In this document: piece by piece, positions 1 to 64,000 of the stretch
Layout of the letters: each line of letters begins with the position of its first letter
Numbering within the stretch: the first letter of the stretch is position 1
Assembly: GCA_011525295.1 (NCBI GenBank)
Contig: WTGV01000025.1
Coordinates: forward strand, 1-64,000
DNA length: 64,000 nt
DNA from: Pseudomonadales bacterium
GTDB lineage: Bacteria; Pseudomonadota; Gammaproteobacteria; Pseudomonadales; Azotimanducaceae
Reading direction: 5' to 3'
Translations under genes and position numbers: made by a program
Notes under the pieces: model-generated
Seen by the model: only the letters and a program-made list of their open reading frames with translations
Database searches by the model: none
Told to the model about the DNA's origin: nothing

Positions 1-555
1 ACCGATTAACACAAACGGTAATGCATCGAAGACAAATTGTAGGGCTTGTTCAATGGGGTGAAATCTCCCAACATTGACCCAATATAGTCGTTTCGGGGAG
101 TGATGTACTTGATGGAAAGCCCACATCCACGGCACTTGATGAAACAAACGGTGTAACCAATATCGAAAGAAGTCACCGACGACGAGTAGCAGAATAGCCT
201 GCAACCAGATAGGCCAGTGATGCGGCCAAATGCCTGATATTTGCCACTTAATGGTTGATGCTAGTGTTGTAACGAGAAAGAATGCGATGAATAGGAGCAG
301 TTGTTCAAGCAGAACCTGTCCTAAAACCATATACGCGACATCGTTGACAAGATCGAAGCGAGTGGGATGCCAATATTGCCGGTATGGCATTAACCATTCA
401 TGCGCCGTTATACAAAGTAATCCCCAGATGATTGCGACGTAGGCAGCTACTGTGCCGGGCATGAAACCTTGTAGCCACGCGAACAAGAGAAATGCAATGC
501 ACATCACTAGCGGATACGCTAGTGTGCGAACACAAACTCTAAACGCGCGGGGCAT
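1..555 (-). CDS. Fatty acid hydroxylase / sterol desaturase family protein, partial (3' end beyond left edge)
   Basis: This reading frame has no stop before the window edge. From the ATG at 555 it gives 185 residues. Hydrophobic stretches lie near residues 13-30, 37-50, 78-98 and 117-128. The di-iron histidine clusters of the fatty acid hydroxylase superfamily are visible: HRLFH at 135-139 and HQVHH at 148-152, with a further His at 166. That family comprises integral membrane oxygenases using a His-ligated di-iron centre to hydroxylate or desaturate lipids; the substrate cannot be read from sequence. The gene lies 29 bases after sufE on the same strand and may be read through from the suf operon. 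A stop at 580-582 closes the frame upstream, so the ATG at 555 is the first good start. Family call is firm, specific role unknown. Confidence 0.8.
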   Translation of the reverse strand, partial: MPRAFRVCVRTLAYPLVMCIAFLLFAWLQGFMPGTVAAYVAIIWGLLCITAHEWLMPYRQYWHPTRFDLVNDVAYMVLGQVLLEQLLLFIAFFLVTTLASTIKWQISGIWPHHWPIWLQAILLLVVGDFFRYWLHRLFHQVPWMWAFHQVHHSPKRLYWVNVGRFHPIEQALQFVFDALPFVLIG

Positions 556-584
556 AAATCTGAACGGAATATACCGCCGTCAGC

Positions 585-1001
585 TCATGAGTGATATTGA
601 CTTGCTACGGATCGTATTTTCTGAATGAGTGCACGTAAGCCGTTCCCTCGAATCGGCGATAAGTGCTTTAGGAGATCAAGTTCGTCAAAAAAATCTGTAA
701 TACCGAAAGACAAGATGTCTCTTGGAGACTGGTCCGAGTAAACAGAGAGTAGGATTGCAATTAGACCACGAACAATATGAGCGTCACTGTCCATTCGTAG
801 CGACAGAATGTCCTCCACTGAATCATATTCCGTAAGTAGCCAGACGCTACTTTGACACCCTTCAACCAGGTATTCTGAACGTCGTTCAGCCTCCGGTACG
901 CCGGGTAGTGAATCGCCGAGTTCGAGAATGTAGCTGTATTTGTCCTCCCAATCAGAAAGGAATTGAATCGATTCTTGGATTTCTTCGAGGTCGTGGAGCA
1001 T
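585..1001 (-). CDS. sufE: SufE, sulfur acceptor for cysteine desulfurase
   Basis: The 138-residue protein has the SufE signature EGCQSSVWL, with the sulfur-accepting cysteine at residue 49. In the known pathway SufE takes persulfide sulfur from SufS and passes it to the SufBC2D scaffold in the cytoplasm. Length matches E. coli SufE. It is the last clear suf gene of the minus-strand operon and starts one base after the sufT stop, so it is almost certainly co-transcribed and probably translationally coupled. The ATG at 1001 gives the expected N-terminus. Confidence 0.95.
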   Translation of the reverse strand: MLHDLEEIQESIQFLSDWEDKYSYILELGDSLPGVPEAERRSEYLVEGCQSSVWLLTEYDSVEDILSLRMDSDAHIVRGLIAILLSVYSDQSPRDILSFGITDFFDELDLLKHLSPIRGNGLRALIQKIRSVASQYHS

Positions 1002-3100: not shown

Positions 3101-4200
3101 GGTCCATCTACCTTTCGGGGTTGTATTCCCAAAACGCTCGCACCCTCATCGTGTTCAACAATCTCCGCCAAAAATCCATCCAAGATCAGTTCACGTGATC
3201 GATCGTCAGGAATGCCGCGGGTTCTCAAATAAAAGATTTGTTGCTCGTCTAATTGGCCGGAGGTTGCACCGTGCGAACAGGCCACATCATCGGCATAAAT
3301 TTCCAATTCTGGTTTTGTGAAGATTGCCGCATTGTCACTAGTCGCAATGTTTTTGTTCTGCAGATGTGCGTCTGTTTTTGGTGCATTTCGAGCGATGTAA
3401 ATACGCCCGTTGAAGACCGCTCGCGCGGAGTCGCCGACTACACCGTGAAATTTTTGTTGACTCGTTGCACCCTTAGCTCGATGATTCACTGCTAGTTGAG
3501 TATCCAAATGGGAAGCGTCGGCGAGCTTCCATCCACCAGAAACGTCAACTTTAGCACCTTCTCCTTCGATGTTGATGACGATATCGTTGCGACGCAACTT
3601 GGCACCTACAGAGTATTGCATCATCTTATAACTTGAACTGTCCATCAAATTAACATTGAGTGAGTTGTATTCGATTTGAGTGGTAGCTAGTTGTATACGC
3701 CGATGAACGAGTTGACCACCAGGAAGGATCAAACACTCAATGACTCGGTTACCACCAGACGTGTGCTCTAAGATTTCAAGATTCGCCTGTTCCTGAACGA
3801 CAATCAGAATGCGCTCGCAAGAATCTGATGCGCGGATCCTAGCCACCGGAGTAACAGAATCACTACATTCACTTGAAACAATCGCATATCCTTGTTGAGC
3901 GCGAAGCAGATTAAGACTAGCCAACACATTGTTTGAATTGTTCGCGATTTGGTTGACATATTTACGGGCCAAGGATGAAATCTTCGGGGTCCCAAAGTCG
4001 CCAATTATTACGCCACTACCACTCTGAGCAGGCAATTCGTTTGTCTCATCGAAAGGATTGTCCAGACGTTCAAGTACCTGTTTCACACTCGTGTACTTCC
4101 AAGGATCCTTTCGTGGTTGCGGCAACCGTGTATTTTCGATGGTTTGCTCGATTTGTTTCGCGTCGAGCCACGGTGCGATTTTGACCGGTTGAGAAGTCAT
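3097..4200 (-). CDS. sufD: SufD, Fe-S scaffold subunit
   Basis: The 367-residue protein is a SufD-type member of the SufBD family. The beta-helix core is recognisable, as is the C-terminal region with ATSDNAAIFTKPELEIYADD and CSHGATSGQLDEQQIFYLRTRG, both typical of SufB/SufD. SufD partners with SufB and two SufC ATPases, and in E. coli is needed for iron entry. Its N-terminal half is divergent, as is usual. It lies between sufC (18-base gap) and sufS (4-base overlap). Confidence 0.94.
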   Translation of the reverse strand: MTSQPVKIAPWLDAKQIEQTIENTRLPQPRKDPWKYTSVKQVLERLDNPFDETNELPAQSGSGVIIGDFGTPKISSLARKYVNQIANNSNNVLASLNLLRAQQGYAIVSSECSDSVTPVARIRASDSCERILIVVQEQANLEILEHTSGGNRVIECLILPGGQLVHRRIQLATTQIEYNSLNVNLMDSSSYKMMQYSVGAKLRRNDIVINIEGEGAKVDVSGGWKLADASHLDTQLAVNHRAKGATSQQKFHGVVGDSARAVFNGRIYIARNAPKTDAHLQNKNIATSDNAAIFTKPELEIYADDVACSHGATSGQLDEQQIFYLRTRGIPDDRSRELILDGFLAEIVEHDEGASVLGIQPRKVDGP

Positions 4201-4218
4201 GTGAAAAACAGCTTCGGC

Positions 4219-4977
4219 TTAAGGGCCGGAGTCCTGCTCCAACCAAGCGTACCCCATACGTTCGAGGTCGAGAGCTAATGTGGCATCGCCGGACTTCACT
4301 ATGGTGCCATTCAACAATACGTGGACATAATCGGGAACTACGTGATTCAGCAATCGTTGGTAGTGTGTAACCAGTACTACTGCATTGTTGGAATTGCGAA
4401 ATTCGTTGATCCCTTTTGCGACGACTTGTAGAGCATCTATGTCGAGACCGGAGTCTGTTTCATCGAGTAATGCGACCGTGGGTTCTAAACAGAGCATTTG
4501 TAAGATTTCGTTGCGTTTCTTTTCACCACCCGAGAATGACTCATTGACGCCTCGCTTCAGAAATTCGGGATTGAAATCCAGTTTGCTGACCAGTGCGCGC
4601 ATGTCTTTGATAAATTCGACCGAAGAGAGGGCTGTTTCACCTCGTTGTTTACGATGGCTATCGACCGCAGTTTTCAGAAATTCCATGTTGGTTACGCCAG
4701 GGATTTCAACTGGATATTGAAACGCTAAGAACAGACCAGCGTACGATCGTTCCTCCGGTTCTAACTCAAGCAGACTTGTACCGTTAAGTCGCAAATCTCC
4801 GGTTTCGACGATATATCCTTCCTGGCCAGCGATGGTGTTGGTTAACGTGCTCTTACCCGAGCCGTTTGGACCCATAATCGCGTGGATTTCGCCGGGATTT
4901 ACCTCTAGATTTACTCCGTTGAGAATTTCACGGTCGGCTACTTTTACATGTAAATCCGAGACTTCGAGTAGGCTCAA
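4219..4977 (-). CDS. sufC: SufC, Fe-S assembly ATPase
   Basis: The 252-residue ABC-type ATPase has Walker [10 protein letters not shown] near residue 37, the signature [15 protein letters not shown] near 150 and Walker [13 protein letters not shown] near 170. The DETDSGLD form is characteristic of SufC. It drives conformational change in the soluble SufBC2D scaffold and is not a transporter. The start is TTG at 4977, which overlaps the sufB stop as TTGA, so translation is probably coupled to sufB. Confidence 0.97.
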
Positions 4978-54565: not shown

Positions 54566-55819
54566 TTACTGTGTGACGGCTACGATTTGTTTACTGACCT
54601 CACGCGGTCTTCGACGCCGTTTTGATCGACGTTTTCGCACAGGGGCTACTTCTTTGAGCATCTGCTCTTGTTCTGCCTCTGATACTTCTTGAATTTTAGT
54701 CCACCAACTCGCGATTTCTGGACTAGCTTCGCCAAGGCCGGCGCGCATACAAAGTAAGTCAAAACCCGCTCGAAAGCGCTTACGAGAAAGGACTTGTTTG
54801 CCGTTTCGTAGAGGGCGCTGCTCCAGTTTCGCTTGCAAACGCCAAGTCTCTATCACAAAGTCTCTTACATCAGCACGTAGCGCGATTCTTTGGGATGGAA
54901 CCTCTAAAACTCGCTTTGCCGCCAAAATTTCGGCTTCACGGTCGTTGCGAATGTTTAGATCACGATAGTCGTGCCAATAGAAAGCGGCGAGCAGAAATGC
55001 GAAGCGTACCGGTTTGCATTGCTTTACTCGGTGATCCGTGTTTTTTAAAGCAGCTTGGCTTAACGCCTCTCGGGTGTCAATTTCCGGAAAGATGTATGAC
55101 AAAAAGTTGTACTTTATGAAGTTGTTACAGAGCGCACGAGCATACCCATGCAGAAGCATTTTTTCTAGATCATAGCTCAAGCGGTGCGGCTCTAAATGTT
55201 CAAGCAAATCTCTTTGCGAGTGTAGCGATTGTGCAAGGTCTTCCGTGAGTTTCAAATCGAGCTTCGACACAAATCGTACGGCCCTAAGTATGCGGTGACA
55301 ATCCTCCGAGAATCTTGTCTCAGGATCACCGATGCACCTTAGCTGTCCATATTTCAAGTCTCGGAGACCACCGACGAAATCAAAGATTACATTCTTTTCG
55401 ACATCTAAGTACAGTGCATTGACCGTGAAATCGCGTAGTCGGTGATCTTGTTTCATCGTTCCAACTTGTTTCGGGCTACGTACTACTGAACGGGTGGGAA
55501 CGGCAGGATCTATGTGATCTTTATTCCACTTGCGATATGTGGATATTTCAACGACGCCAATTTCACTCTTAACATGCACAATGCGAAACCTTCGACCGAT
55601 GATTTGAGCTTGCTTAAATATTCGTCTAACTTGGAACGGCGTGGCACTCGTTACAACGTCAAAGTCTTTGGGTTTAATGTGAAGGAGGAGGTCGCGAACA
55701 CACCCGCCTACAAGTTTTGCGTCGTATCCATTGTCGCGCAGCTTTTGCACAATGCGTCTGACCGATTTCGGTATTTGGGCCGTATCGATAAGGTTCTTGT
55801 GTCGTTTAAGTTTTGCCAA
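54566..55819 (-). CDS. pcnB: Poly(A) polymerase I
   Basis: The 417-residue class II nucleotidyltransferase has LVGGCVRDLLLHIKPKDFDV with the catalytic Asp pair, then IIGRRFRIVHV, which together with the Arg/Lys-rich C-terminus (RKRRSKRRRRPR) indicates PcnB rather than CCA-adding enzyme. It adds 3' poly(A) tails that promote RNA decay, in partnership with PNPase. The start is TTG at 55819. E. coli pcnB uses the weak start AUU, so a weak start here fits deliberately low expression. Confidence 0.92.
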   Translation of the reverse strand: MAKLKRHKNLIDTAQIPKSVRRIVQKLRDNGYDAKLVGGCVRDLLLHIKPKDFDVVTSATPFQVRRIFKQAQIIGRRFRIVHVKSEIGVVEISTYRKWNKDHIDPAVPTRSVVRSPKQVGTMKQDHRLRDFTVNALYLDVEKNVIFDFVGGLRDLKYGQLRCIGDPETRFSEDCHRILRAVRFVSKLDLKLTEDLAQSLHSQRDLLEHLEPHRLSYDLEKMLLHGYARALCNNFIKYNFLSYIFPEIDTREALSQAALKNTDHRVKQCKPVRFAFLLAAFYWHDYRDLNIRNDREAEILAAKRVLEVPSQRIALRADVRDFVIETWRLQAKLEQRPLRNGKQVLSRKRFRAGFDLLCMRAGLGEASPEIASWWTKIQEVSEAEQEQMLKEVAPVRKRRSKRRRRPREVSKQIVAVTQ

Positions 55820-56012: not shown

Positions 56013-57875
56013 TTAGCCAGAGACTCCCTGTGTGTCTTCGATTTCTGGTTCTGGCTCTACGAGGGATTCATCCATACCATAACGATTAACAAGAAACTCC
56101 TTTAACGCGGCCGGGCGAACGTGCTTCTTATAGATACACCCTTCCGAATCGACAAGATAACCCATCGGGATCCCCATCACACCATAACTAGTTGCGACCG
56201 GACCTTCCCAGTCTTTAAGTTCGCCGAGATTAGTCCACGGTAATTTGTGGTCTTCAAGACCTTCAATCCAGTCTTCCTTCTTGCTATCGATGGAGACTCC
56301 CACGATTTCAAAGTCTTCATCCTCATAAGCTGCATAGAGTTTTTTGAGTTCAGGAAAATCAGCGATACAGGGTCCACACCAAGAAGCCCAAAAATCAATC
56401 AGCACCAAATCCTTTTCGCCGAGTAGGTCATAGAGTGTTAAGTCCTCATCCGTCGCGTTCGCTAGTGTAAATTCAGGTACACGTTGACCTGGAATAAGAG
56501 CTGCACCGTTAGCTCTGGCAATGGCCGCCCAATTTATAAAGTCTATCTGCGGTGTGATTCTATTGGCGACGAATTCCTTGTCGAATTTCTCTACAAGTGA
56601 TTGCCATCCTGCGAGTCTTTCTGCGTCGTCAGCATAAGGTCCTAGTGACATGGCGAGGTATTGAGCTAGTGAGTCATCGCTCTCTTCCACAATCGTTCTC
56701 AATGTCTTAGTGCGAATTTCTCTAGCTTGTTGTTGCAAGGCGAGGTACTTAGGTGTATCGCGTTGAATTGGTGAAATTGGTACTGGTTGTTGTGGATCAT
56801 CTGCGATTGCGTCTTCGCAACCTTCTGCGGGCTCTACTGAATCGACAAGTTGAGTTGCGTCAATATCAGATTCTGTAGTATCTTCAGCATCGTCTTCTAC
56901 ATCGGCCGCTTCTTCATTGGTGGTTTCACTTTCTTCCTGTTCACTCTGCTTCGTCGTATCACCTTCTGCCAAGTTCGGGGGTTCGGGAGGATTTCTTGAT
57001 AGTGCTAACTCAGAAGCCCAGGCATCAACTAGTTCGACGTACTCTTCACTTTGTTGCCAGCTCTCGATCAGCATGGCGTGATACCCTGAACCACTAGTAG
57101 CTGCTAATTCTTCAGTTTGACTTCCCAATTTGGAAATCTCAAACGTTCCTTCGGGTTCAAGAACCAAACTCAAGCTCCTATAGTAACTATCGCCCCTAAT
57201 GGTAACAGTAGCTACAGATGGTTCTTCGACGACGCCTTCTATAAGAAACGAGTTGTTTTGTACCAACACCGGCCCCCAGTCTTGCCATTGACTGTTACCA
57301 CTATCGTCAAAGATTTGTGTATACATCAATACGATCGTGTCGTCTGCAAGATTCTCTTCGAAGAAACCTAGATCTCCCGAAAATACGAATTTATTCTCTG
57401 AGTCCATAACTTGACTTGACGTACCAGCAAGCACGAATTGATCAGGACGGGGACTTGGATAGTCAATCAAAGCAACACTGACATCGTGTCCCGTTCCGAT
57501 CAAGGTAGTGATCTCCATTGGATCGGTATCCTCAGAAACCTGCAAAGAGATCTTTACTTCGGTGGGTTCCAGAATTTCGGGTTCGTATTCGAAGCTACCC
57601 GTAAAAGTTTCTTCGTACAAAGTAACGGTTTCTGACTTTCCGTCGGCGTCGACTGTTTCGTAGGAAATGGTCAGTATTGAGTCGGACAAGTCTACGGGTT
57701 CAGCAGCTTCTTCGCTTGAACCATCTTCGACAGTGCCTGTTACTTCAGACACATCGGGAATCATGGAAACGATTTCACCGGTAATCTTGTTAGATGTTGA
57801 TTCGTCGCTCTGATCGCAAGCAACAAATAGAGTCACTATGCACAGCAAACCGAAAGTTTTGAGTGCTGTTTTCAT
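56013..57875 (-). CDS. TlpA-type thioredoxin protein, copy 1 (predicted lipoprotein)
   Basis: The 620-residue protein begins with an export signal whose end, LFVAC, fits a lipobox with lipidated C20. Residues about 30-260 are beta-rich and resemble the DUF4369-type domain found before TlpA domains in Bacteroidetes (FLIEGVVEEPSVATVTIRG, LVLEPEGTFEI). An acidic Glu/Asp/Ser/Thr linker spans about 295-345. A helical segment follows at 370-450, then a thioredoxin domain with WCGPC (C500, C503) and cis-Pro in MGIPMGYL. Other cysteines are C353 (EGCEDA) and one in EGCIYKK. Predicted periplasmic, membrane-anchored disulfide reductase; the partner is unknown. It is the first of three tandem paralogues. 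Confidence 0.85.
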   Translation of the reverse strand: MKTALKTFGLLCIVTLFVACDQSDESTSNKITGEIVSMIPDVSEVTGTVEDGSSEEAAEPVDLSDSILTISYETVDADGKSETVTLYEETFTGSFEYEPEILEPTEVKISLQVSEDTDPMEITTLIGTGHDVSVALIDYPSPRPDQFVLAGTSSQVMDSENKFVFSGDLGFFEENLADDTIVLMYTQIFDDSGNSQWQDWGPVLVQNNSFLIEGVVEEPSVATVTIRGDSYYRSLSLVLEPEGTFEISKLGSQTEELAATSGSGYHAMLIESWQQSEEYVELVDAWASELALSRNPPEPPNLAEGDTTKQSEQEESETTNEEAADVEDDAEDTTESDIDATQLVDSVEPAEGCEDAIADDPQQPVPISPIQRDTPKYLALQQQAREIRTKTLRTIVEESDDSLAQYLAMSLGPYADDAERLAGWQSLVEKFDKEFVANRITPQIDFINWAAIARANGAALIPGQRVPEFTLANATDEDLTLYDLLGEKDLVLIDFWASWCGPCIADFPELKKLYAAYEDEDFEIVGVSIDSKKEDWIEGLEDHKLPWTNLGELKDWEGPVATSYGVMGIPMGYLVDSEGCIYKKHVRPAALKEFLVNRYGMDESLVEPEPEIEDTQGVSG

Positions 57876-58316
57876 TTGTTAATCTCCTGTGTTCTTAGAG
57901 TTGAGATGTTTCTGTCACGAAACTATGCTTCAATGAAGGGGATTTAGCAGGTGTTTTAATGATTCCAACCTGAAATTTGGTCTTGCAGCTTAGACGTGTC
58001 GCCCTGTACATCCTCGCGTTTACGGACATTTTGAGACAAATAATTGTAATCAGGCTGTTCTATGGTATTAGTTTAAACCCTAACCGGTGTGTTTCAGTCA
58101 GAGATTTACTTCTTTCAATACCTAGAACACAAACACGCTACGAGCATGTGGTTCTAACGAAGTAGTTGGCTCACTAGATGAATTCAGCCTCGCATTTCCT
58201 CAAGTATAAGCCAAGGAGTAAAGTGAGAGAGGATTGTGCTGTATGAGTAAGAATGAAACTCGCGCGAGCTATCGTCTCGCGCGAATCATTCAATCGTTTG
58301 GTCGCGAGTCGCGATG
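57876..58316. other. Non-coding gap between TlpA copies 1 and 2
   Basis: No convincing gene. It contains the copy 1 leader, unlike that of the other copies, and a GC-rich inverted repeat (CGCGCGAG 58261-58268 and CTCGCGCG 58276-58283) followed on the minus strand by AGTTTC. That hairpin may be a weak terminator for copy 2 transcripts. A 24-codon plus-strand frame at 58243-58317 spans the repeat and is probably chance. Confidence 0.5.
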
Positions 58317-58403
58317 AAGCAACTGCGTTATGGCATACCGATGACAGCCAGAATTCTCAATCAGTCATCGGTATGCGGGTCATAATTTATAAAAAAGTTG
58401 CTT
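58317..58403. repeat. 87-base nested inverted repeat abutting the stop of TlpA copy 2
   Basis: Three nested pairs of arms are visible: AAGCAACT (58317-58324) with AGTTGCTT (58396-58403); TTATG (58328-58332) with CATAA (58381-58385); and GCATACCGATGAC (58333-58345) with GTCATCGGTATGC (58364-58376). About 26 bp can pair. There is no T-run directly after the inner stem on either strand, so it is not a standard terminator. It could be a MITE-like element or an RNA-stabilising 3' structure. Confidence 0.7.
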
Positions 58404-60273
58404 AACTTGAGATTTCTGGTGTTTCTTCGGGTTCTTCTTCCGGTTCCACTAAAGACTCATCCAAGCCATAACGATCAACCAGAAAGTCTTTCAACTCGCT
58501 AGTGTGAATATTCTTTCGATAGATACACCCTTGGGAGTCAATCAAGAAAGTCGAAGGGATGAAGTTGATGCCATAGCTCTTTGAAACAGGGCTACCGTTA
58601 TTGGCATCCTTGAGTTCACCGAGCTGTACCCAAGGTAGTTGATGATCTTCAACACCACCGGACCAATCCTCGAAATTGTTGTCGACAGACACACCGACGA
58701 TTTCGAAGTTTTCGTCAGTATACGCTGCATGAAGTTTCTTCAACTCGGGGAAAGTCGCGATACAAGGACCGCACCAAGAAGCCCAGAAGTCAATCAGAAC
58801 CATGTCCTTCGTTTTGGCCAGGTCGTAAAGCGAGACATCGTCACCGTCAAGACTTGCTAGTGTAAATGCGGGAACTTTTTGACCCGGCACCAGTGCTTCG
58901 TTGTTTAAGGTGCGAGTATGTACGAGTTCAATTCTCTCCAACTCTGGTGAGATGTAAGCAGCCACAAAGTCTGCATCAAACTTCTCGGCAAGAGCTCCCC
59001 ACACTGCCAACGCTTCTTCCGCGTCTTCGTAAGGACTGAATATACCCATTTGCATAGCGAGTAACTGTGCGTTTGGATCTTTGTGATTCTTAGCGATGTC
59101 CTGTAACTTCTCAGTCTGGAAAGCTGCTGCTTCCATTCTCAACGTATACCACTGCGGATATTCATATGATGGCGTTTGAGCTACTGGTTCAGTTTCTTCT
59201 TCCTGTGCAACCGCATCCTCGCAGCCTTCCACCGGTTCGATAGCGTCGACAAGTTCAACACTGTCAACTTCCGCGTCTGCATCGCTGTCGTCTTCTTCGC
59301 TAGCCACTTCTTCCTCGGTATCAGATGTGGTTTCATCCTCCGCCTCGTCAGAACTATCTGCTGGTTCGTCTGGCGCGTTGCGGGCTCGCTCCTGCTCAGA
59401 AGTCCACGCTTCTACCATTGCAATGTACTCGTCGCTCTGTTGCCAGCTTTCGATTAATTGAGCATGGTATCCCTTACCACTCACAACTGATACTTCTTGT
59501 GTCTGGTTTCCTAACTTTGCAACTGTGAGTTCGCCCTGGGGTTCCAAAATGATTCGAGCGGTAGTGTTTAGAAAACTACTTTGATTACGTAGATACAGAG
59601 TAGCTGTTAAAGGTCGGTCGATGTCGCCTTCAATCACGAACGAACCATCCTCGACCAAAACAGGTCCCCATTGTTTTCCTTGTCGTTGGCCTTCAGAGTT
59701 GACAAACGTTGCCCACACGAATGCTGATGTAGTATGCAGGGAATCGTTTTCTATAAAACTGAGATCTCCAGTTACCGCAAACTTGTTCTCTGAATTAAGA
59801 ACTTGATTACTCGATCCAAAAACAAGAAATTCATCTCTTGGGCCAGGATGGTCGACATATACGAGGCGAACGTCCGAACCGGAGTCCATAACCGTGTTTA
59901 TCGTCATAGGATCGCTTTCTTCGGTAATCTTGAGCGAAATCGAAACTTCGGTAGGTTCGGAGAAAAGGAAGGGTTGATCGCCGATTTGAAGGAGATGTAT
60001 GAAGTGTTCTTCGTACGATCCCTCATAGAGCGTTTGGGTTTCAGCCTCTCCATCTGAGTTGGTTGTTTCGTAAGAAATAGTTAACACTGCTTTGGAAAAA
60101 TCTACAGGTTCAATTGACGGTGCTTCTGCAGCAGCAGCTTCGGTCTTGCTTTCTGGTTCAATTGAAATGAATTCGCTCGAAACAATGCTAAAAGCATCCG
60201 GGTGACCTGCATTGCTCACGGCAACTAGTGCGAAGGCACAAAACAGGCTAAGGATTTTTTGAAAATTATTCAT
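58402..60273 (-). CDS. TlpA-type thioredoxin protein, copy 2 (predicted secreted)
   Basis: The 623-residue paralogue of copies 1 and 3 has an ordinary signal peptide (MNNFQKILSLFCAFALVAVS, likely cut near NAG) without a lipobox, so it should be soluble in the periplasm. The order is the same: beta-rich DUF4369-like domain, acidic linker (about 300-345), helical segment and thioredoxin domain with WCGPC at C501/C504 and cis-Pro in NFIPSTFL. The conserved extra cysteines are in EGCEDA and QGCIYRK. GAGG lies 10 bases before the ATG. Its leader is shared with copy 3. Function inferred as thiol-disulfide exchange; partners unknown. Confidence 0.85.
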   Translation of the reverse strand: MNNFQKILSLFCAFALVAVSNAGHPDAFSIVSSEFISIEPESKTEAAAAEAPSIEPVDFSKAVLTISYETTNSDGEAETQTLYEGSYEEHFIHLLQIGDQPFLFSEPTEVSISLKITEESDPMTINTVMDSGSDVRLVYVDHPGPRDEFLVFGSSNQVLNSENKFAVTGDLSFIENDSLHTTSAFVWATFVNSEGQRQGKQWGPVLVEDGSFVIEGDIDRPLTATLYLRNQSSFLNTTARIILEPQGELTVAKLGNQTQEVSVVSGKGYHAQLIESWQQSDEYIAMVEAWTSEQERARNAPDEPADSSDEAEDETTSDTEEEVASEEDDSDADAEVDSVELVDAIEPVEGCEDAVAQEEETEPVAQTPSYEYPQWYTLRMEAAAFQTEKLQDIAKNHKDPNAQLLAMQMGIFSPYEDAEEALAVWGALAEKFDADFVAAYISPELERIELVHTRTLNNEALVPGQKVPAFTLASLDGDDVSLYDLAKTKDMVLIDFWASWCGPCIATFPELKKLHAAYTDENFEIVGVSVDNNFEDWSGGVEDHQLPWVQLGELKDANNGSPVSKSYGINFIPSTFLIDSQGCIYRKNIHTSELKDFLVDRYGLDESLVEPEEEPEETPEISS

Positions 60274-60316
60274 GGATCAATTTCCTCGCGAAAATGTTTA
60301 GTGATCTGGGTAGCTC
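60271..60316 (-). promoter_or_regulatory. Conserved leader of TlpA copy 2
   Basis: Plus-strand blocks CATGGATCAATTTCCTC (60271-60287) and TAGTGATCTGGGTAGCTC (60299-60316) recur identically before copy 3. The first block contains the ribosome site and ATG; the second, at the 5' side, may be part of a promoter, operator or 5' untranslated region. Confidence 0.5.
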
Positions 60317-60917
60317 AACGGTTCAAGAGCTCGGACGAAGGAAGAGTCGCTATAGCATGTCACCTGTTTCGAGTGACTGTGGTGTACGCTGTCTACCTCC
60401 GTAGCGTAACACCATTTTAATTGATTACGTTATCTGTAGATTCTAATATGAAGTGCCCTCAAGGTACCTATAGCACTCTAGGTAGTTAATACTGTTTAAG
60501 GTAGCACTGCTCCGGAGGGTCAACATTCAATCAAGGCTATCGTCTGAGTCGTAGGTAGTGTTGATTTGGGTACTCTCTATTCATCTGAAGAGTAGGAATA
60601 ACCCTTGGCCACGCGCAAAACCGACGTTCGATGGCCAACGCCGACCGAGTCGTCAGACCGTGCGGGTCTGGTAGGAATTCGTTCAGATGCTCCGACAACG
60701 TCTGCGCAAACTATCTCCCAAACCCTATCATGAGCCTAAGACTCAAATTGATGTTCAAGCAAGCTTAAGTTGCTCCTGACTCGACGAACTGTTGCATCGC
60801 GATCGGCACCAAGGTGGAGACCTCTACACATGTCAGCTATGCCGCGGACGAAAAAATCGCAAACGTCTTTCCCCTTGTACCAGTAGCAGCAAGTCGCTAG
60901 TAGATGTTTGAGGAAGC
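60274..60917. other. Leader and intergenic sequence upstream of TlpA copy 2
   Basis: The first ~160 bases are homologous to the copy 3 leader. Further on, CAGACC (60654-60659) and GGTCTG (60665-60670) form a short hairpin. A minus-strand frame (60736-60951, 71 codons) runs into the copy 3 terminator; read through its TAG it stays open about 50 more codons. I do not recognise the product and consider it a relic or chance. Confidence 0.4.
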
Positions 60918-60970
60918 AAAAAGAGTGCGTAGCGCGCGAGTGTTCAACCACCCACGCGCGCTACGCACTC
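60918..60970 (-). terminator. Second terminator after TlpA copy 3: 16-bp perfect stem
   Basis: GAGTGCGTAGCGCGCG (60923-60938) and CGCGCGCTACGCACTC (60955-60970) are perfect inverted arms with a 16-base loop. On the minus strand the stem is followed by TTTTT (60922-60918). The stem is unusually long and GC-rich. Confidence 0.85.
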
Positions 60971-60982
60971 ACTTAAATCAAT

Positions 60983-61005
60983 AAAAACGTACCGCAGAGC
61001 GGTAC
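60983..61005 (-). terminator. First terminator after TlpA copy 3
   Basis: GTACCGC (60989-60995) and GCGGTAC (60999-61005) form a perfect 7-bp stem with a 3-base loop, beginning about 10 bases after the copy 3 stop and followed on the minus strand by G and TTTTT (60987-60983). Confidence 0.85.
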
Positions 61006-61015
61006 ATTCAATATA

Positions 61016-62863
61016 TTAGCTGGATACCTCTTGTGTATCGTCGGTCTCTACTTCCGGCTCTTCTAACGACTCATCCATGCCATAACGGTCGACGAGGAAT
61101 TCTTTCAGAGCTGCAGGTCGGATGTTCTTTTTGTAAATACAACCCTGCGAATCGACAAGAAACCCCTTGGGAATAGCGTTCACGCCATACATCGTAGACA
61201 CTGGACCTTCCCAGCCCTTCACTTCGCCGAGGTTGATCCAAGGTAGTTCATGTTCGTCAACACCACCTAGCCAATCTTCGTCAGTGCTGTCGATAGACAC
61301 GCCAACGATTTCGAAGTCTTCGTCTGTGTAAGCAGCGTGGAGTTTCTTGAGTTCGGGGAAGTCAGCGATGCAGGGTCCGCACCAAGATGCCCAAAAATCG
61401 ATTAAGACGATGTCGTTATCAGCTAACAGACTGTAGAGCGATCGGTCTTCACCGTCGTAATCTGCCAATGTAAACTCTGGTACTTTTTGACCAGGTATCA
61501 ATACTGCATCGTTATTCAGGACCGTGACATATTGGTTGAGTCGTTCAATTTTCGGATTTAGATTGGACTCAACGAATTGCTCGTCGAATTCATCAACAAG
61601 CGATTGCAGGGCATCGAGTTCCGACTTGGGATCGTAATAACCATACGGGCTAAATTCGAGAGCTAAATAGCGCGCCATCGGATCGTCATCGCCTTCAGCA
61701 ACTTCTTTTAACTTGTCGTTTTTGAATGCGACCGCTTTTTGTTGTAATTGGTAGTACTGTGGAGGTGTGTAGGACGAATCAGGGATATCACTATCTTGCG
61801 CTACTGCATCTTCACAACCCTCTGCGGGTGTGAGAGTCTCGACAACATCTTCCGACTCGGAAGAGTCTTCGGAGTCAGTATCGCTCTCTGCTACATCGGA
61901 GTCTTCTTCGTCTGCTACTTCGGGTTCCGGTTCCCCAGCCTCCCAGCGTTCAACGAATTGGTCGTATTCGGTTGCATAAGCTTCGATCATAGAGATGTAT
62001 TTGCTGTCTTGTTGCCAACTCTCAACAAGCTTGCGGTGGTATCCGCTTCCACTGGTTACACTGAGCTCTTGAATTTGGTTTCCTAACTGTGATACGACAA
62101 GATTTGTTTGCGGTTCGAGAATAATTGAAGCATTAGCGTAATAATTGGCACTGTCGTTTATCCACATTCGTGCCATCATAGGACCGTCAACATCTCCTTG
62201 AATCATGAACGAGTCGTTCTTTAATAGCACTGGTCCCCAAGATTTAAATTGGCGTTGGCCTTCGTCATCGAAGTACATAACGTCCACAAACACGGTTGCC
62301 ACGCTCGAAATATCGGGTCCGAGAAAACTCAAGTCTCCCGACAAGGTAAACTGATTCTCCGGATTCATCACTTGATTTGTAGCGCCTACCAGTACAAACT
62401 GGTCCCGCGGACCTGGTCGGTCTATATACGCAAAGCGAACGTCAGAATCTGTTCCGATCACGGCGTTTATTGTCATAGGTTCGCTATCTTCGGTGAGATG
62501 CAGTGAAATTTTGACATCGGTAGGTTCTGACACTTGAACCACATTCGCAAAGTTTTCTTGGTAAGGACCGTCGTACAGCATGACTGTTTCCGATTCGCCC
62601 TCAGCGTTGGTTGTTTCATATGAAACGGTCAGAGTTGCTTCCGACAGGTCAACCGGTTCGAGTGCTGGATCCTCTGTAGGAGTAACTTCAATTTCAGCCT
62701 CGGCGTCGTCTTCAGACTGAGCGGTTTCTCCTTCTTTAGCTTCCGGTTCTATCGTAATAAGTTCTCCGGTAATTTTGTAAGGCATAGATGTGCTTGCATG
62801 GCTACATACGGCCACGAATGCGAAAATGCATGATAGACCGAGAACTTTCAAAAAATTGTTCAT
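61016..62863 (-). CDS. TlpA-type thioredoxin protein, copy 3 (predicted secreted)
   Basis: The 615-residue third paralogue starts MNNFLKVLGLSCIFAFVAVC, close to copy 2. Its signal could be cut near SHAS; a lipobox around C20 would be poor because Val precedes it. Domains follow the same order, with an acidic linker at about 300-345 and the thioredoxin active site WCGPC at C495/C498, cis-Pro in NAIPKGFL. Extra cysteines in EGCEDA and QGCIYKK are conserved. Its thioredoxin part is closer to copy 1 (IADFPELKKL, IRPAALKEFLV) while its leader and signal match copy 2. Two terminators follow. Inferred role as for the other copies. Confidence 0.85.
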   Translation of the reverse strand: MNNFLKVLGLSCIFAFVAVCSHASTSMPYKITGELITIEPEAKEGETAQSEDDAEAEIEVTPTEDPALEPVDLSEATLTVSYETTNAEGESETVMLYDGPYQENFANVVQVSEPTDVKISLHLTEDSEPMTINAVIGTDSDVRFAYIDRPGPRDQFVLVGATNQVMNPENQFTLSGDLSFLGPDISSVATVFVDVMYFDDEGQRQFKSWGPVLLKNDSFMIQGDVDGPMMARMWINDSANYYANASIILEPQTNLVVSQLGNQIQELSVTSGSGYHRKLVESWQQDSKYISMIEAYATEYDQFVERWEAGEPEPEVADEEDSDVAESDTDSEDSSESEDVVETLTPAEGCEDAVAQDSDIPDSSYTPPQYYQLQQKAVAFKNDKLKEVAEGDDDPMARYLALEFSPYGYYDPKSELDALQSLVDEFDEQFVESNLNPKIERLNQYVTVLNNDAVLIPGQKVPEFTLADYDGEDRSLYSLLADNDIVLIDFWASWCGPCIADFPELKKLHAAYTDEDFEIVGVSIDSTDEDWLGGVDEHELPWINLGEVKGWEGPVSTMYGVNAIPKGFLVDSQGCIYKKNIRPAALKEFLVDRYGMDESLEEPEVETDDTQEVSS

Positions 62864-62903
62864 GGATCAATTTCCTCTTAAGAATTAGTGATCTGGGTAG
62901 CTC
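62861..62903 (-). promoter_or_regulatory. Conserved leader of TlpA copy 3
   Basis: The same two blocks as before copy 2 occur at 62861-62877 and 62886-62903, with 8 instead of 11 bases between. A further matching AT-rich block (TTTTATTGATTGCGTTA, 63002-63018) corresponds to 60415-60432 in copy 2. Confidence 0.5.
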
Positions 62904-63248: not shown

Positions 63249-64000
63249 CTATTGACCTAGCTGACGTTCGCGTAATTCATCGCGTTCTTTACAGTCGATA
63301 CACTTCGTGACTATTGGTCTTGCCTCCAATCGACGAATTGGAATCTCGCAACCGCATGCTTCGCAGTATCCGTAGGACCCAGTTTTCAGACAGTCGATGG
63401 CGCGATTGATTTTTCTAACTAGTTGGCTCTCCCGATCCCTAGTCCGAAGTTGATTGTGAAAAACCCCTTCGTTGGTTCCCTGATCTAAGGGATCTGGAAG
63501 ATTGCTTGCGTCATTCTCCTGTAATTGACTAGCTCTATCGGCTTCTTCTGATAGCAACTTTTCTTTCGCCCGCGTAAGTATGTCCATAAAGTGGTCTTGT
63601 TGTGCACCGGACATGAACAAGTCGCTATTAGTTAATTGATAAGGCTTGTAGTAGATTCCTTGAAAACCAATGACATAATCATCTGTAGTCATATCCACAG
63701 GATGACGAACGACTGATGGTGCTACGGTTTTCGCTCGCGTCTTACGTGGTTTTCTCTTCACCCGAGGTGAGGTTTTCGTCTGTGCAGTTGCCTTCTCTAC
63801 ACGATCTTTCGGCTTGGTCTCACTCTTCTTCTGAGGTGTTCGCTTTCTTGTCTTGCTTGTGCTTTTCTTGGGTGTGGTGTCTGCTTGGGTACTTTCAGGC
63901 TTTGCGAGTGTAGGATCAGAAATTACCTTAGATGTTCGTGATTGTCTTTGGTTCTTGCGAACAGTAGATTTCTTAGTTGGCTGTGCTTCAGCTTGACGAG
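63249..64000 (-). CDS. dksA: DksA RNA-polymerase-binding regulator, partial, with long basic N-terminal extension
   Basis: The DksA core ends with the zinc finger CEACGCEIPIRRLEARP...CIDCKE and the helix RTRDRESQLVRKINRAIDCL. The coiled-coil tip reads DPLDQG, where E. coli has DPVDRA, so the two aspartates are kept but the following Ala is Gly. A GTG at 63761 could give 170 residues. However, the frame continues without a stop to the right edge: 80 more codons rich in Lys, Thr, Arg and Pro (TPKKSTSKTRKRTPQKK). I therefore treat the gene as extending beyond the window. DksA works with ppGpp to regulate rRNA and amino-acid promoters. Confidence 0.9.
   Translation of the reverse strand, partial: RQAEAQPTKKSTVRKNQRQSRTSKVISDPTLAKPESTQADTTPKKSTSKTRKRTPQKKSETKPKDRVEKATAQTKTSPRVKRKPRKTRAKTVAPSVVRHPVDMTTDDYVIGFQGIYYKPYQLTNSDLFMSGAQQDHFMDILTRAKEKLLSEEADRASQLQENDASNLPDPLDQGTNEGVFHNQLRTRDRESQLVRKINRAIDCLKTGSYGYCEACGCEIPIRRLEARPIVTKCIDCKERDELRERQLGQ

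What the first reader, a model, noticed from the sequence alone, without database searches (positions are those of the whole stretch)
56013..62863. Tandem array of three large TlpA-type thioredoxin paralogues
Three consecutive minus-strand genes encode 615-623-residue exported proteins of one architecture (DUF4369-like beta domain, acidic linker, helical segment, WCGPC thioredoxin domain). Each sits behind its own 385-740-base non-coding region rather than in a packed operon like the rest of the window. DUF4369-TlpA proteins are best known from Bacteroidetes; a triplicated, separately transcribed set in a gammaproteobacterium suggests a specialised periplasmic redox function with several substrates or conditions.
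Basis: partly seen in the sequence, partly recalled or inferred. Interest (0 to 1): 0.72.

Follow-up and report, generated by a model that had tools for sequence, protein, structure and literature searches.

The report
Massively expanded exported thioredoxin family
Three neighbouring genes for large exported thioredoxin-like proteins turn out to be a small part of a family of about thirty in this small bacterial genome, with a shared extra cysteine pair and amplified in part of one genus, which suggests a dedicated set of extracytoplasmic disulfide-handling proteins of unknown clients.

Summary
The three genes are real (50-52% identical, full length). They are a corner of something larger: the 2.53 Mb genome holds 31 full-length members plus short and broken ones. 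I collected 165 full-length members from 15 of 18 genomes of the genus (lower bounds outside this genome): ten genomes have 6-31, eight have 0-1.

Architecture: two homologous DUF4369-like beta domains, acidic linker, helical domain, TlpA/ResA-type thioredoxin domain (CxxC in 155 of 165). A second cysteine pair, linker C350 and thioredoxin-domain C575, is complete in 129 of 165, absent in 36, never half present. TlpA has cysteines at matching places (10 and 155 in 1JFU). A CxxC-less paralogue kept in six genomes retains the pair. The genome's only detected DsbD gene lies beside a short member.

Best reading (partly inferred): DsbD-fed exported thiol reductases whose variable beta modules dock different clients, pinned to the redox core by a TlpA-type structural disulfide. 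A second exported family of alpha-helical repeats is expanded in the same ten genomes (33-73 matches, against 0-6). Clients are unknown; nothing is tested at the bench.

The parts
56013..57875 (-). family member 1, 620 aa, lipobox-like signal (LFVAC, by eye), two beta domains, acidic linker, helical domain, TlpA-type Trx (WCGPC), tether Cys pair
58402..60273 (-). family member 2, 623 aa, same architecture and tether Cys pair
61016..62863 (-). family member 3, 615 aa, same architecture; AlphaFold pLDDT 87.8, pTM 0.83
62375..62788 (-). beta domain 1 of member 3 (about residues 26-163)
62054..62353 (-). beta domain 2 of member 3 (about residues 171-270), homologous to beta domain 1; DUF4369-like
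61844..61900 (-). acidic linker, core of its low-confidence stretch (residues 322-340 below pLDDT 50)
61814..61816 (-). Cys350 (GCED), linker partner of the tether pair
61502..61759 (-). helical domain (about residues 369-454); solved 4YOD matches helical plus Trx part
61370..61381 (-). active site CGPC (residues 495-498)
61139..61141 (-). Cys575 (GCI), thioredoxin-domain partner of the tether pair
60985..61009 (-). terminator-like hairpin (11 pairs) after member 3; a second hairpin with T run follows (read by eye, about 60915-60972)
58257..58287 (-). terminator-like hairpin (12 pairs) after member 2
60274..60316 (-). leader element CAGATCACTA...GAGGAAATTGATCC before member 2, shared with the leader of member 3
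62864..62903 (-). the same leader element before member 3
63249..63998 (-). dksA (upstream flank of the array; runs off the window)
54566..55819 (-). pcnB, poly(A) polymerase (downstream flank of the array)

Best explanation
The three genes belong to a clade-limited, strongly expanded family of exported TlpA-type thiol:disulfide reductases. Shown by sequence: conserved CxxC thioredoxin domain, export signals, two homologous DUF4369-like beta domains, an acidic linker, a second cysteine pair that is present or absent as a unit, purifying selection, gene conversion over a thioredoxin domain, and a DsbD gene beside a short member of the family. Inferred: DsbD passes electrons to the CxxC; the CxxC reduces disulfides (or sulfenylated cysteines) of proteins outside the cytoplasm; the variable beta modules on the flexible acidic linker choose the client; the C350-C575 pair is a structural disulfide of the TlpA type that fixes the end of the linker on the redox core; the paralogues serve different clients or conditions.
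Confidence: 0.58

Rival explanations
1. The proteins mainly bind something at the cell surface; the thioredoxin domain is a scaffold or an occasional partner and catalysis is secondary.
For: Ten of 165 core members score as lacking CxxC and all ten keep the tether pair; six of them, one in each of six genomes, are 48-92% identical to one another and about 30% to the rest. Most of the protein is non-catalytic beta and linker.
Against: 155 of 165 keep CxxC; the Trx domain is the most alike between paralogues.
Confidence: 0.13
2. The family is a reservoir for antigenic or phase-like variation, recombining to change surface parts.
For: Many tandem copies, broken copies and clear gene conversion.
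Against: The one conversion tract examined covers the constant Trx domain, not the variable part; N-terminal domains of orthologues are under purifying selection (beta domains 0 to 0.32 in pairs with enough synonymous changes); leaders and order at the dksA-pcnB locus are conserved between species.
Confidence: 0.07
3. Maturation of respiratory enzymes: the proteins reduce apocytochrome c or copper-site cysteines, as ResA/CcmG and rhizobial TlpA do (recalled functions).
For: The closest named NCBIfam models are ResA, TlpA and DsbE, and the accessory Cys pair is that of TlpA.
Against: Scores are far below those models' cut-offs; such maturation usually needs one or two proteins, not thirty (recalled). 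The neighbours of the array are dksA and pcnB, no cytochrome or copper gene.
Confidence: 0.08
4. Neutral or selfish amplification: copies multiply in recombination-prone regions and most do little.
For: Broken copies, uneven copy number between near relatives, a second unrelated family amplified in the same genomes.
Against: Purifying selection in near-duplicate and orthologous pairs; 31 intact copies in a 2.5 Mb genome; conserved synteny of this array in six genomes.
Confidence: 0.14

Closest known systems
TlpA of rhizobia (NF047696; PDB 1JFU, 4TXO, 4TXV)
   Same: Trx domain of the same type; accessory Cys pair at matching places (10 and 155 in 1JFU; both present in 10 of 10 ORFs of this model that I extracted from 12 loci); N-terminal anchor
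   Different: TlpA is about 220-237 aa, without beta domains, acidic linker or helical domain; member 3 scores 54.3 bits against a cut-off of 230; mostly one match per genome
Bacteroidota DUF4369-helical-TlpA proteins (4YOD, 4GRF, 3FKF, 3FW2 for parts)
   Same: beta2, helical and Trx parts align in this order; best structural matches
   Different: mostly about 360-400 aa, so without room for the extra beta domain and linker; no Cys at position 575 in the 26 rows compared
ResA (NF002854; 1ST9, 1SU9)
   Same: Trx fold, CxxC, exported thiol reductase
   Different: 60.7 bits for member 3 against a cut-off of 170; no N-terminal modules
Short gammaproteobacterial DUF4369-TlpA proteins, also in sister genera (L266-L269)
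   Same: group with the family in the tree; a DUF4369 match plus Trx
   Different: 399-472 aa, matching the family profile only from about position 153-197 on; no tether pair in the nine rows of this kind other than the one from G000 C1:3186

Membership tests
TlpA/ResA/DsbE-type thiol:disulfide oxidoreductases (broad fold family) | Trx-like fold with CxxC active site and cis-Pro position, exported | tested here: met
TlpA/ResA/DsbE-type thiol:disulfide oxidoreductases (broad fold family) | thiol reductase activity fed by DsbD/CcdA | not testable with these tools
   only the gene neighbourhood of DsbD was seen
TlpA sensu stricto (NF047696) | score above the curated cut-off of 230 bits | tested here: not met
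   54.3 bits for member 3; 0 matches in G000 at E 1e-30
TlpA sensu stricto (NF047696) | accessory Cys pair (N-terminal segment and GC-I hairpin) | tested here: met
   129 of 165 have both, 36 neither, all three window members have both; 1JFU Cys 10 and 155; that these form a disulfide in the crystal is recalled
ResA (NF002854) | score above cut-off of 170 bits | tested here: not met
   60.7 bits for member 3
DUF4369 (PF14289) | score above 25 bits | tested here: inconclusive
   window members 18.3-21.0; 4 of 12 matches in G000 pass the cut-off, two of them in full-length members
Bacteroidota-type DUF4369-TlpA architecture | DUF4369 domain, helical domain, Trx domain in this order | tested here: met
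   beta2, helical and Trx parts align to Bacteroidota proteins, with an added beta1 domain and acidic linker

The most novel reading that the evidence does not exclude
This clade has evolved a two-family exported system: some thirty thiol reductases with a constant redox core and a variable docking half, each devoted to one extracytoplasmic or host-derived protein, together with some sixty exported alpha-helical repeat proteins amplified in the same genomes as scaffolds, clients or regulators. It would be an extracytoplasmic disulfide-editing repertoire on a scale I know of in no other proteobacterium (recalled, not searched exhaustively).
Probability: 0.2. Interest if true: 0.8.

Novelty: new variant of a known kind. 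Interest (0 to 1): 0.6.

Why it matters
Extracytoplasmic thiol reductases are usually present in one to a few copies with set tasks (recalled). Thirty-odd intact copies in a 2.5 Mb genome, under purifying selection and differing mainly outside the redox core, would make client choice by TlpA-type proteins directly testable: same core, many docking halves. The all-or-none cysteine pair gives a simple structural prediction, and the conserved CxxC-less paralogue gives a natural control.

Tried and rejected
Rejected: (1) 'just a triplication'; I list 42 places. (2) Recent import from Bacteroidota: the family groups with gammaproteobacterial DUF4369-TlpA (96*; a quick tree, and the tool warned of long branches, among them the outsider C38). 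(3) Selenocysteine at in-frame TGA: not examined; single stops were taken as broken copies. (4) Family B as a thiol substrate: no Cys column reaches 30% in 25 full-length members. (5) RNA element in the leaders: no significant fold (z -0.24 and -1.49); Rfam gave only the three tRNAs in the window. (6) sigma-70 scan: 3 sites against 9.1 in shuffles, uninformative; terminator scan 10 against 7.2, so only the two longest stems are cited. (7) Decayed copy inside the window's own 742-base gap: tblastn gave only weak hits there (best E about 0.05), so relics are shown in relatives only. (8) A first count put the CxxC-less group in seven genomes; one search shows six (the G014 member is not of that group), and one of the ten members scored as CxxC-less (G003 C96:14228) has a run of cysteines near the site, so its motif may lie outside my alignment slice. 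(9) 'Full-length family members in other genera': the 38 other genomes with a match match only at profile positions 403-566 (E 1e-25, three candidates scored each), but short relatives that reach into the DUF4369 part do occur in sister genera.

Limits: counts in genomes other than G000 are lower bounds, because only matches listed were fetched. Seven of 172 full-length ORFs under 250 bits were dropped from the core set, one a clear outsider (C38), the others short forms. Family B matches are stretches, not genes, and in four genomes only 71 candidates were scored. The loci beside DsbD were read in 11 of 18 genomes.
Full report
OBSERVATION. The window holds three consecutive minus-strand ORFs of 620, 623 and 615 codons at 56013-57875, 58402-60273 and 61016-62863, between dksA (63249-63998) and pcnB (54566-55819), followed by panB and panC. 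The other two are 52% and 50% identical to 61016 over their length. Pfam gives a thioredoxin/AhpC-TSA domain at about 457-590 in each; DUF4369 lies under its cut-off in the three but over it in two full-length relatives within the same genome.

THE FAMILY IS FAR LARGER. A search of the window's own assembly (G000, 2,529,862 bases in 68 contigs) with one of the proteins gives 66 matched stretches, most of them in clusters. After reading stretches around them, I count 31 full-length members in G000, plus Trx-only, short and broken ones. Twelve full-length members lie on one 43 kb contig. In the genus, the profile finds matches in 15 of 18 genomes. From fetched stretches I kept 234 ORFs, 172 of them full length, 165 after dropping seven under 250 bits: G000 31, G007 23, G014 21, G003 18, G002 16, G011 13, G013 12, G006 11, G008 9, G010 6, and one each in G004, G009, G015, G016, G017. 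G001, G005 and G012 had no match at E 1e-15 (G001 and G012 are 77-78% complete). Numbers outside G000 are lower bounds. Among 398 Pseudomonadota genomes (G000 one of them), 38 others had a match at E 1e-25, all at profile positions 403-566, that is the Trx domain and little more (three candidates scored per genome). Shorter relatives with a DUF4369 match exist in sister genera (4 genomes outside the genus among 81 of the family).

THE LOCUS. dksA and pcnB flank three family genes in G000, G008, G011 and G013 and four in G002 and G007. G010 has one beside pcnB, with no dksA in the stretch held. In seven low-copy genomes (G001, G005, G009, G012, G015, G016, G017) a dksA-like gene and pcnB lie within about 0.2-1.1 kb of each other without any family gene. 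In G003, G004, G006 and G014 neither dksA nor a family gene lies in the 1.5 kb beside pcnB. So the array most simply grew at an older dksA-pcnB junction. At the place of the 742-base gap, G007, G011 and G013 carry fragments of a further copy. Long terminator-like hairpins follow 61016 and 58402, though the scan's total is not above shuffles. The leaders of 61016 and 58402 and of their orthologues share an element that holds the ribosome-binding-like GAGGA; 11 of 165 members have it in the 60 bases upstream, 56013 does not.

THE TETHER PAIR. Besides CxxC, most members have one Cys in the linker region (C350, usually CEH or CED) and one in the Trx domain hairpin (C575, GCI). Of 165 members 129 have both, 36 neither, none only one (of the 172 before the cut 130, 42 and 0). 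On trees built without the C575 column both traits change six times, in the same places by necessity; four of these lie on supported branches, where the sign test gives 0.125 and cannot do better. Members with tether and CxxC have exactly four cysteines from residue 66 on in 108 of 119; of ten members with the tether but scored as lacking CxxC nine have exactly two and one has four; one of the ten may be mis-scored. Two proteins of 225 and 224 residues without beta domains, linker and helical domain keep both tether cysteines (my count had missed one of them because it cut the first 35 residues). Ten of ten TlpA ORFs extracted from twelve NF047696 loci have both cysteines; in 1JFU they are residues 10 and 155 of the chain, and the model aligns 345..595 to 5..180 of 1JFU, which would place C350 on Cys10. 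That TlpA's pair is a structural disulfide is recalled. None of 26 Bacteroidota relatives and one of ten short gammaproteobacterial rows has C575. The pair is therefore most simply a structural disulfide that pins the end of the linker to the redox core; the distance was not measured because coordinates are not given.

EVOLUTION. CxxC is kept in 155 of 165. Six of the others, one each in G000, G002, G007, G008, G011 and G013, are 48-92% identical to one another and about 30% to the rest. In G000 paralogues (32 rows, one later dropped) the median identity is 45% for Trx and 23-28% for the other parts. In 12 orthologous or near-duplicate pairs dN/dS per domain is 0 to 0.37, except two values (0.82, 1.08) that rest on very few synonymous changes; two domains of the most distant pair are saturated. 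Trx has the lowest ratio in 7 of the 12 pairs, setting the saturated domains aside. DNA identity between 61016 and the copy at C64:11537 is 49-73% up to about codon 480 and 89-97% from there on: gene conversion over the Trx domain. In a quick IQ-TREE, family, members of low-copy genomes and short gammaproteobacterial DUF4369-TlpA form one group (96*) apart from Bacteroidota.

REDUCTANT AND NEIGHBOURS. The only DsbD_TM match of G000 lies at C1:176-814, in an ORF 137 bases from the short member C1:1504-2958; two more TlpA-like genes and a TonB-dependent receptor follow. Eleven such loci were read, in 11 of 18 genomes; the ten candidate DsbD proteins all match DsbD_TM and Thioredoxin_7, in G010 with one ORF between; G004 has none in the stretch held.

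A SECOND EXPANDED FAMILY. Proteins of about 600 residues with an N-terminal hydrophobic segment (by eye), helical-repeat-like W and A patterns, no convincing Pfam or NCBIfam match (best 0.01 and 0.0016, single members), a weak match to designed PPR solenoids, and no conserved Cys have 65 matches in G000. They number 33-73 matches in the ten genomes where the thioredoxin family is expanded and 0-6 in the other eight. Eight of 21 clusters lie within 10 kb of a thioredoxin-family gene against 11% of the genome (nominal p 0.0015, clusters taken as independent). By pcnB similarity the ten genomes may be one clade, so this may be one joint event, not ten.

MECHANISM AND VERDICT. I read the family as DsbD-fed, exported TlpA-type reductases with a constant core and variable docking half. 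Electron flow, clients and the docking role are inferred. It works like TlpA/ResA, but is not a member of either curated family (scores far below cut-off).

Noticed in passing
G000 C48:249826-271497, C28:83-12117, C47:15631-30762, C2:59410-70407 and others; L130:5271-7094, L134:6064-7887, L139:335-8211: A second, unnamed family of about 600-residue alpha-repeat-like proteins with 65 matches in this 2.5 Mb genome, expanded in the same ten genomes as the thioredoxin family.
   Followed up: partly
L140:7482-9317 (G000 C28:19482-21317) and relatives in G002, G007, G008, G011, G013: A paralogue kept in six genomes that has lost the CxxC motif but keeps the second cysteine pair; a natural inactive control.
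   Followed up: partly
L131:13613-17233 and L135:4094-7582: A pair of proteins of 1206 and 1162 residues, 28% identical, no convincing Pfam family (a sub-threshold Golvesin_C hit in one), each lying 100-200 bases from a thioredoxin-family gene.
   Followed up: no
L131:10368-12152: A leucine-rich-repeat protein between thioredoxin-family genes, with a 49% identical relative at G000 C32:24861-26066.
   Followed up: no
L136:2982-3659 and 3675-4349: Two tandem minimal members, signal plus GCEH plus Trx domain only, that look like rhizobial TlpA in layout.
   Followed up: yes
L134:4037-5482: A 481-residue protein with an N-terminal Thioredoxin_7 domain (WTTWCGPC), not a full member of the family, inside a family cluster.
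   Followed up: no
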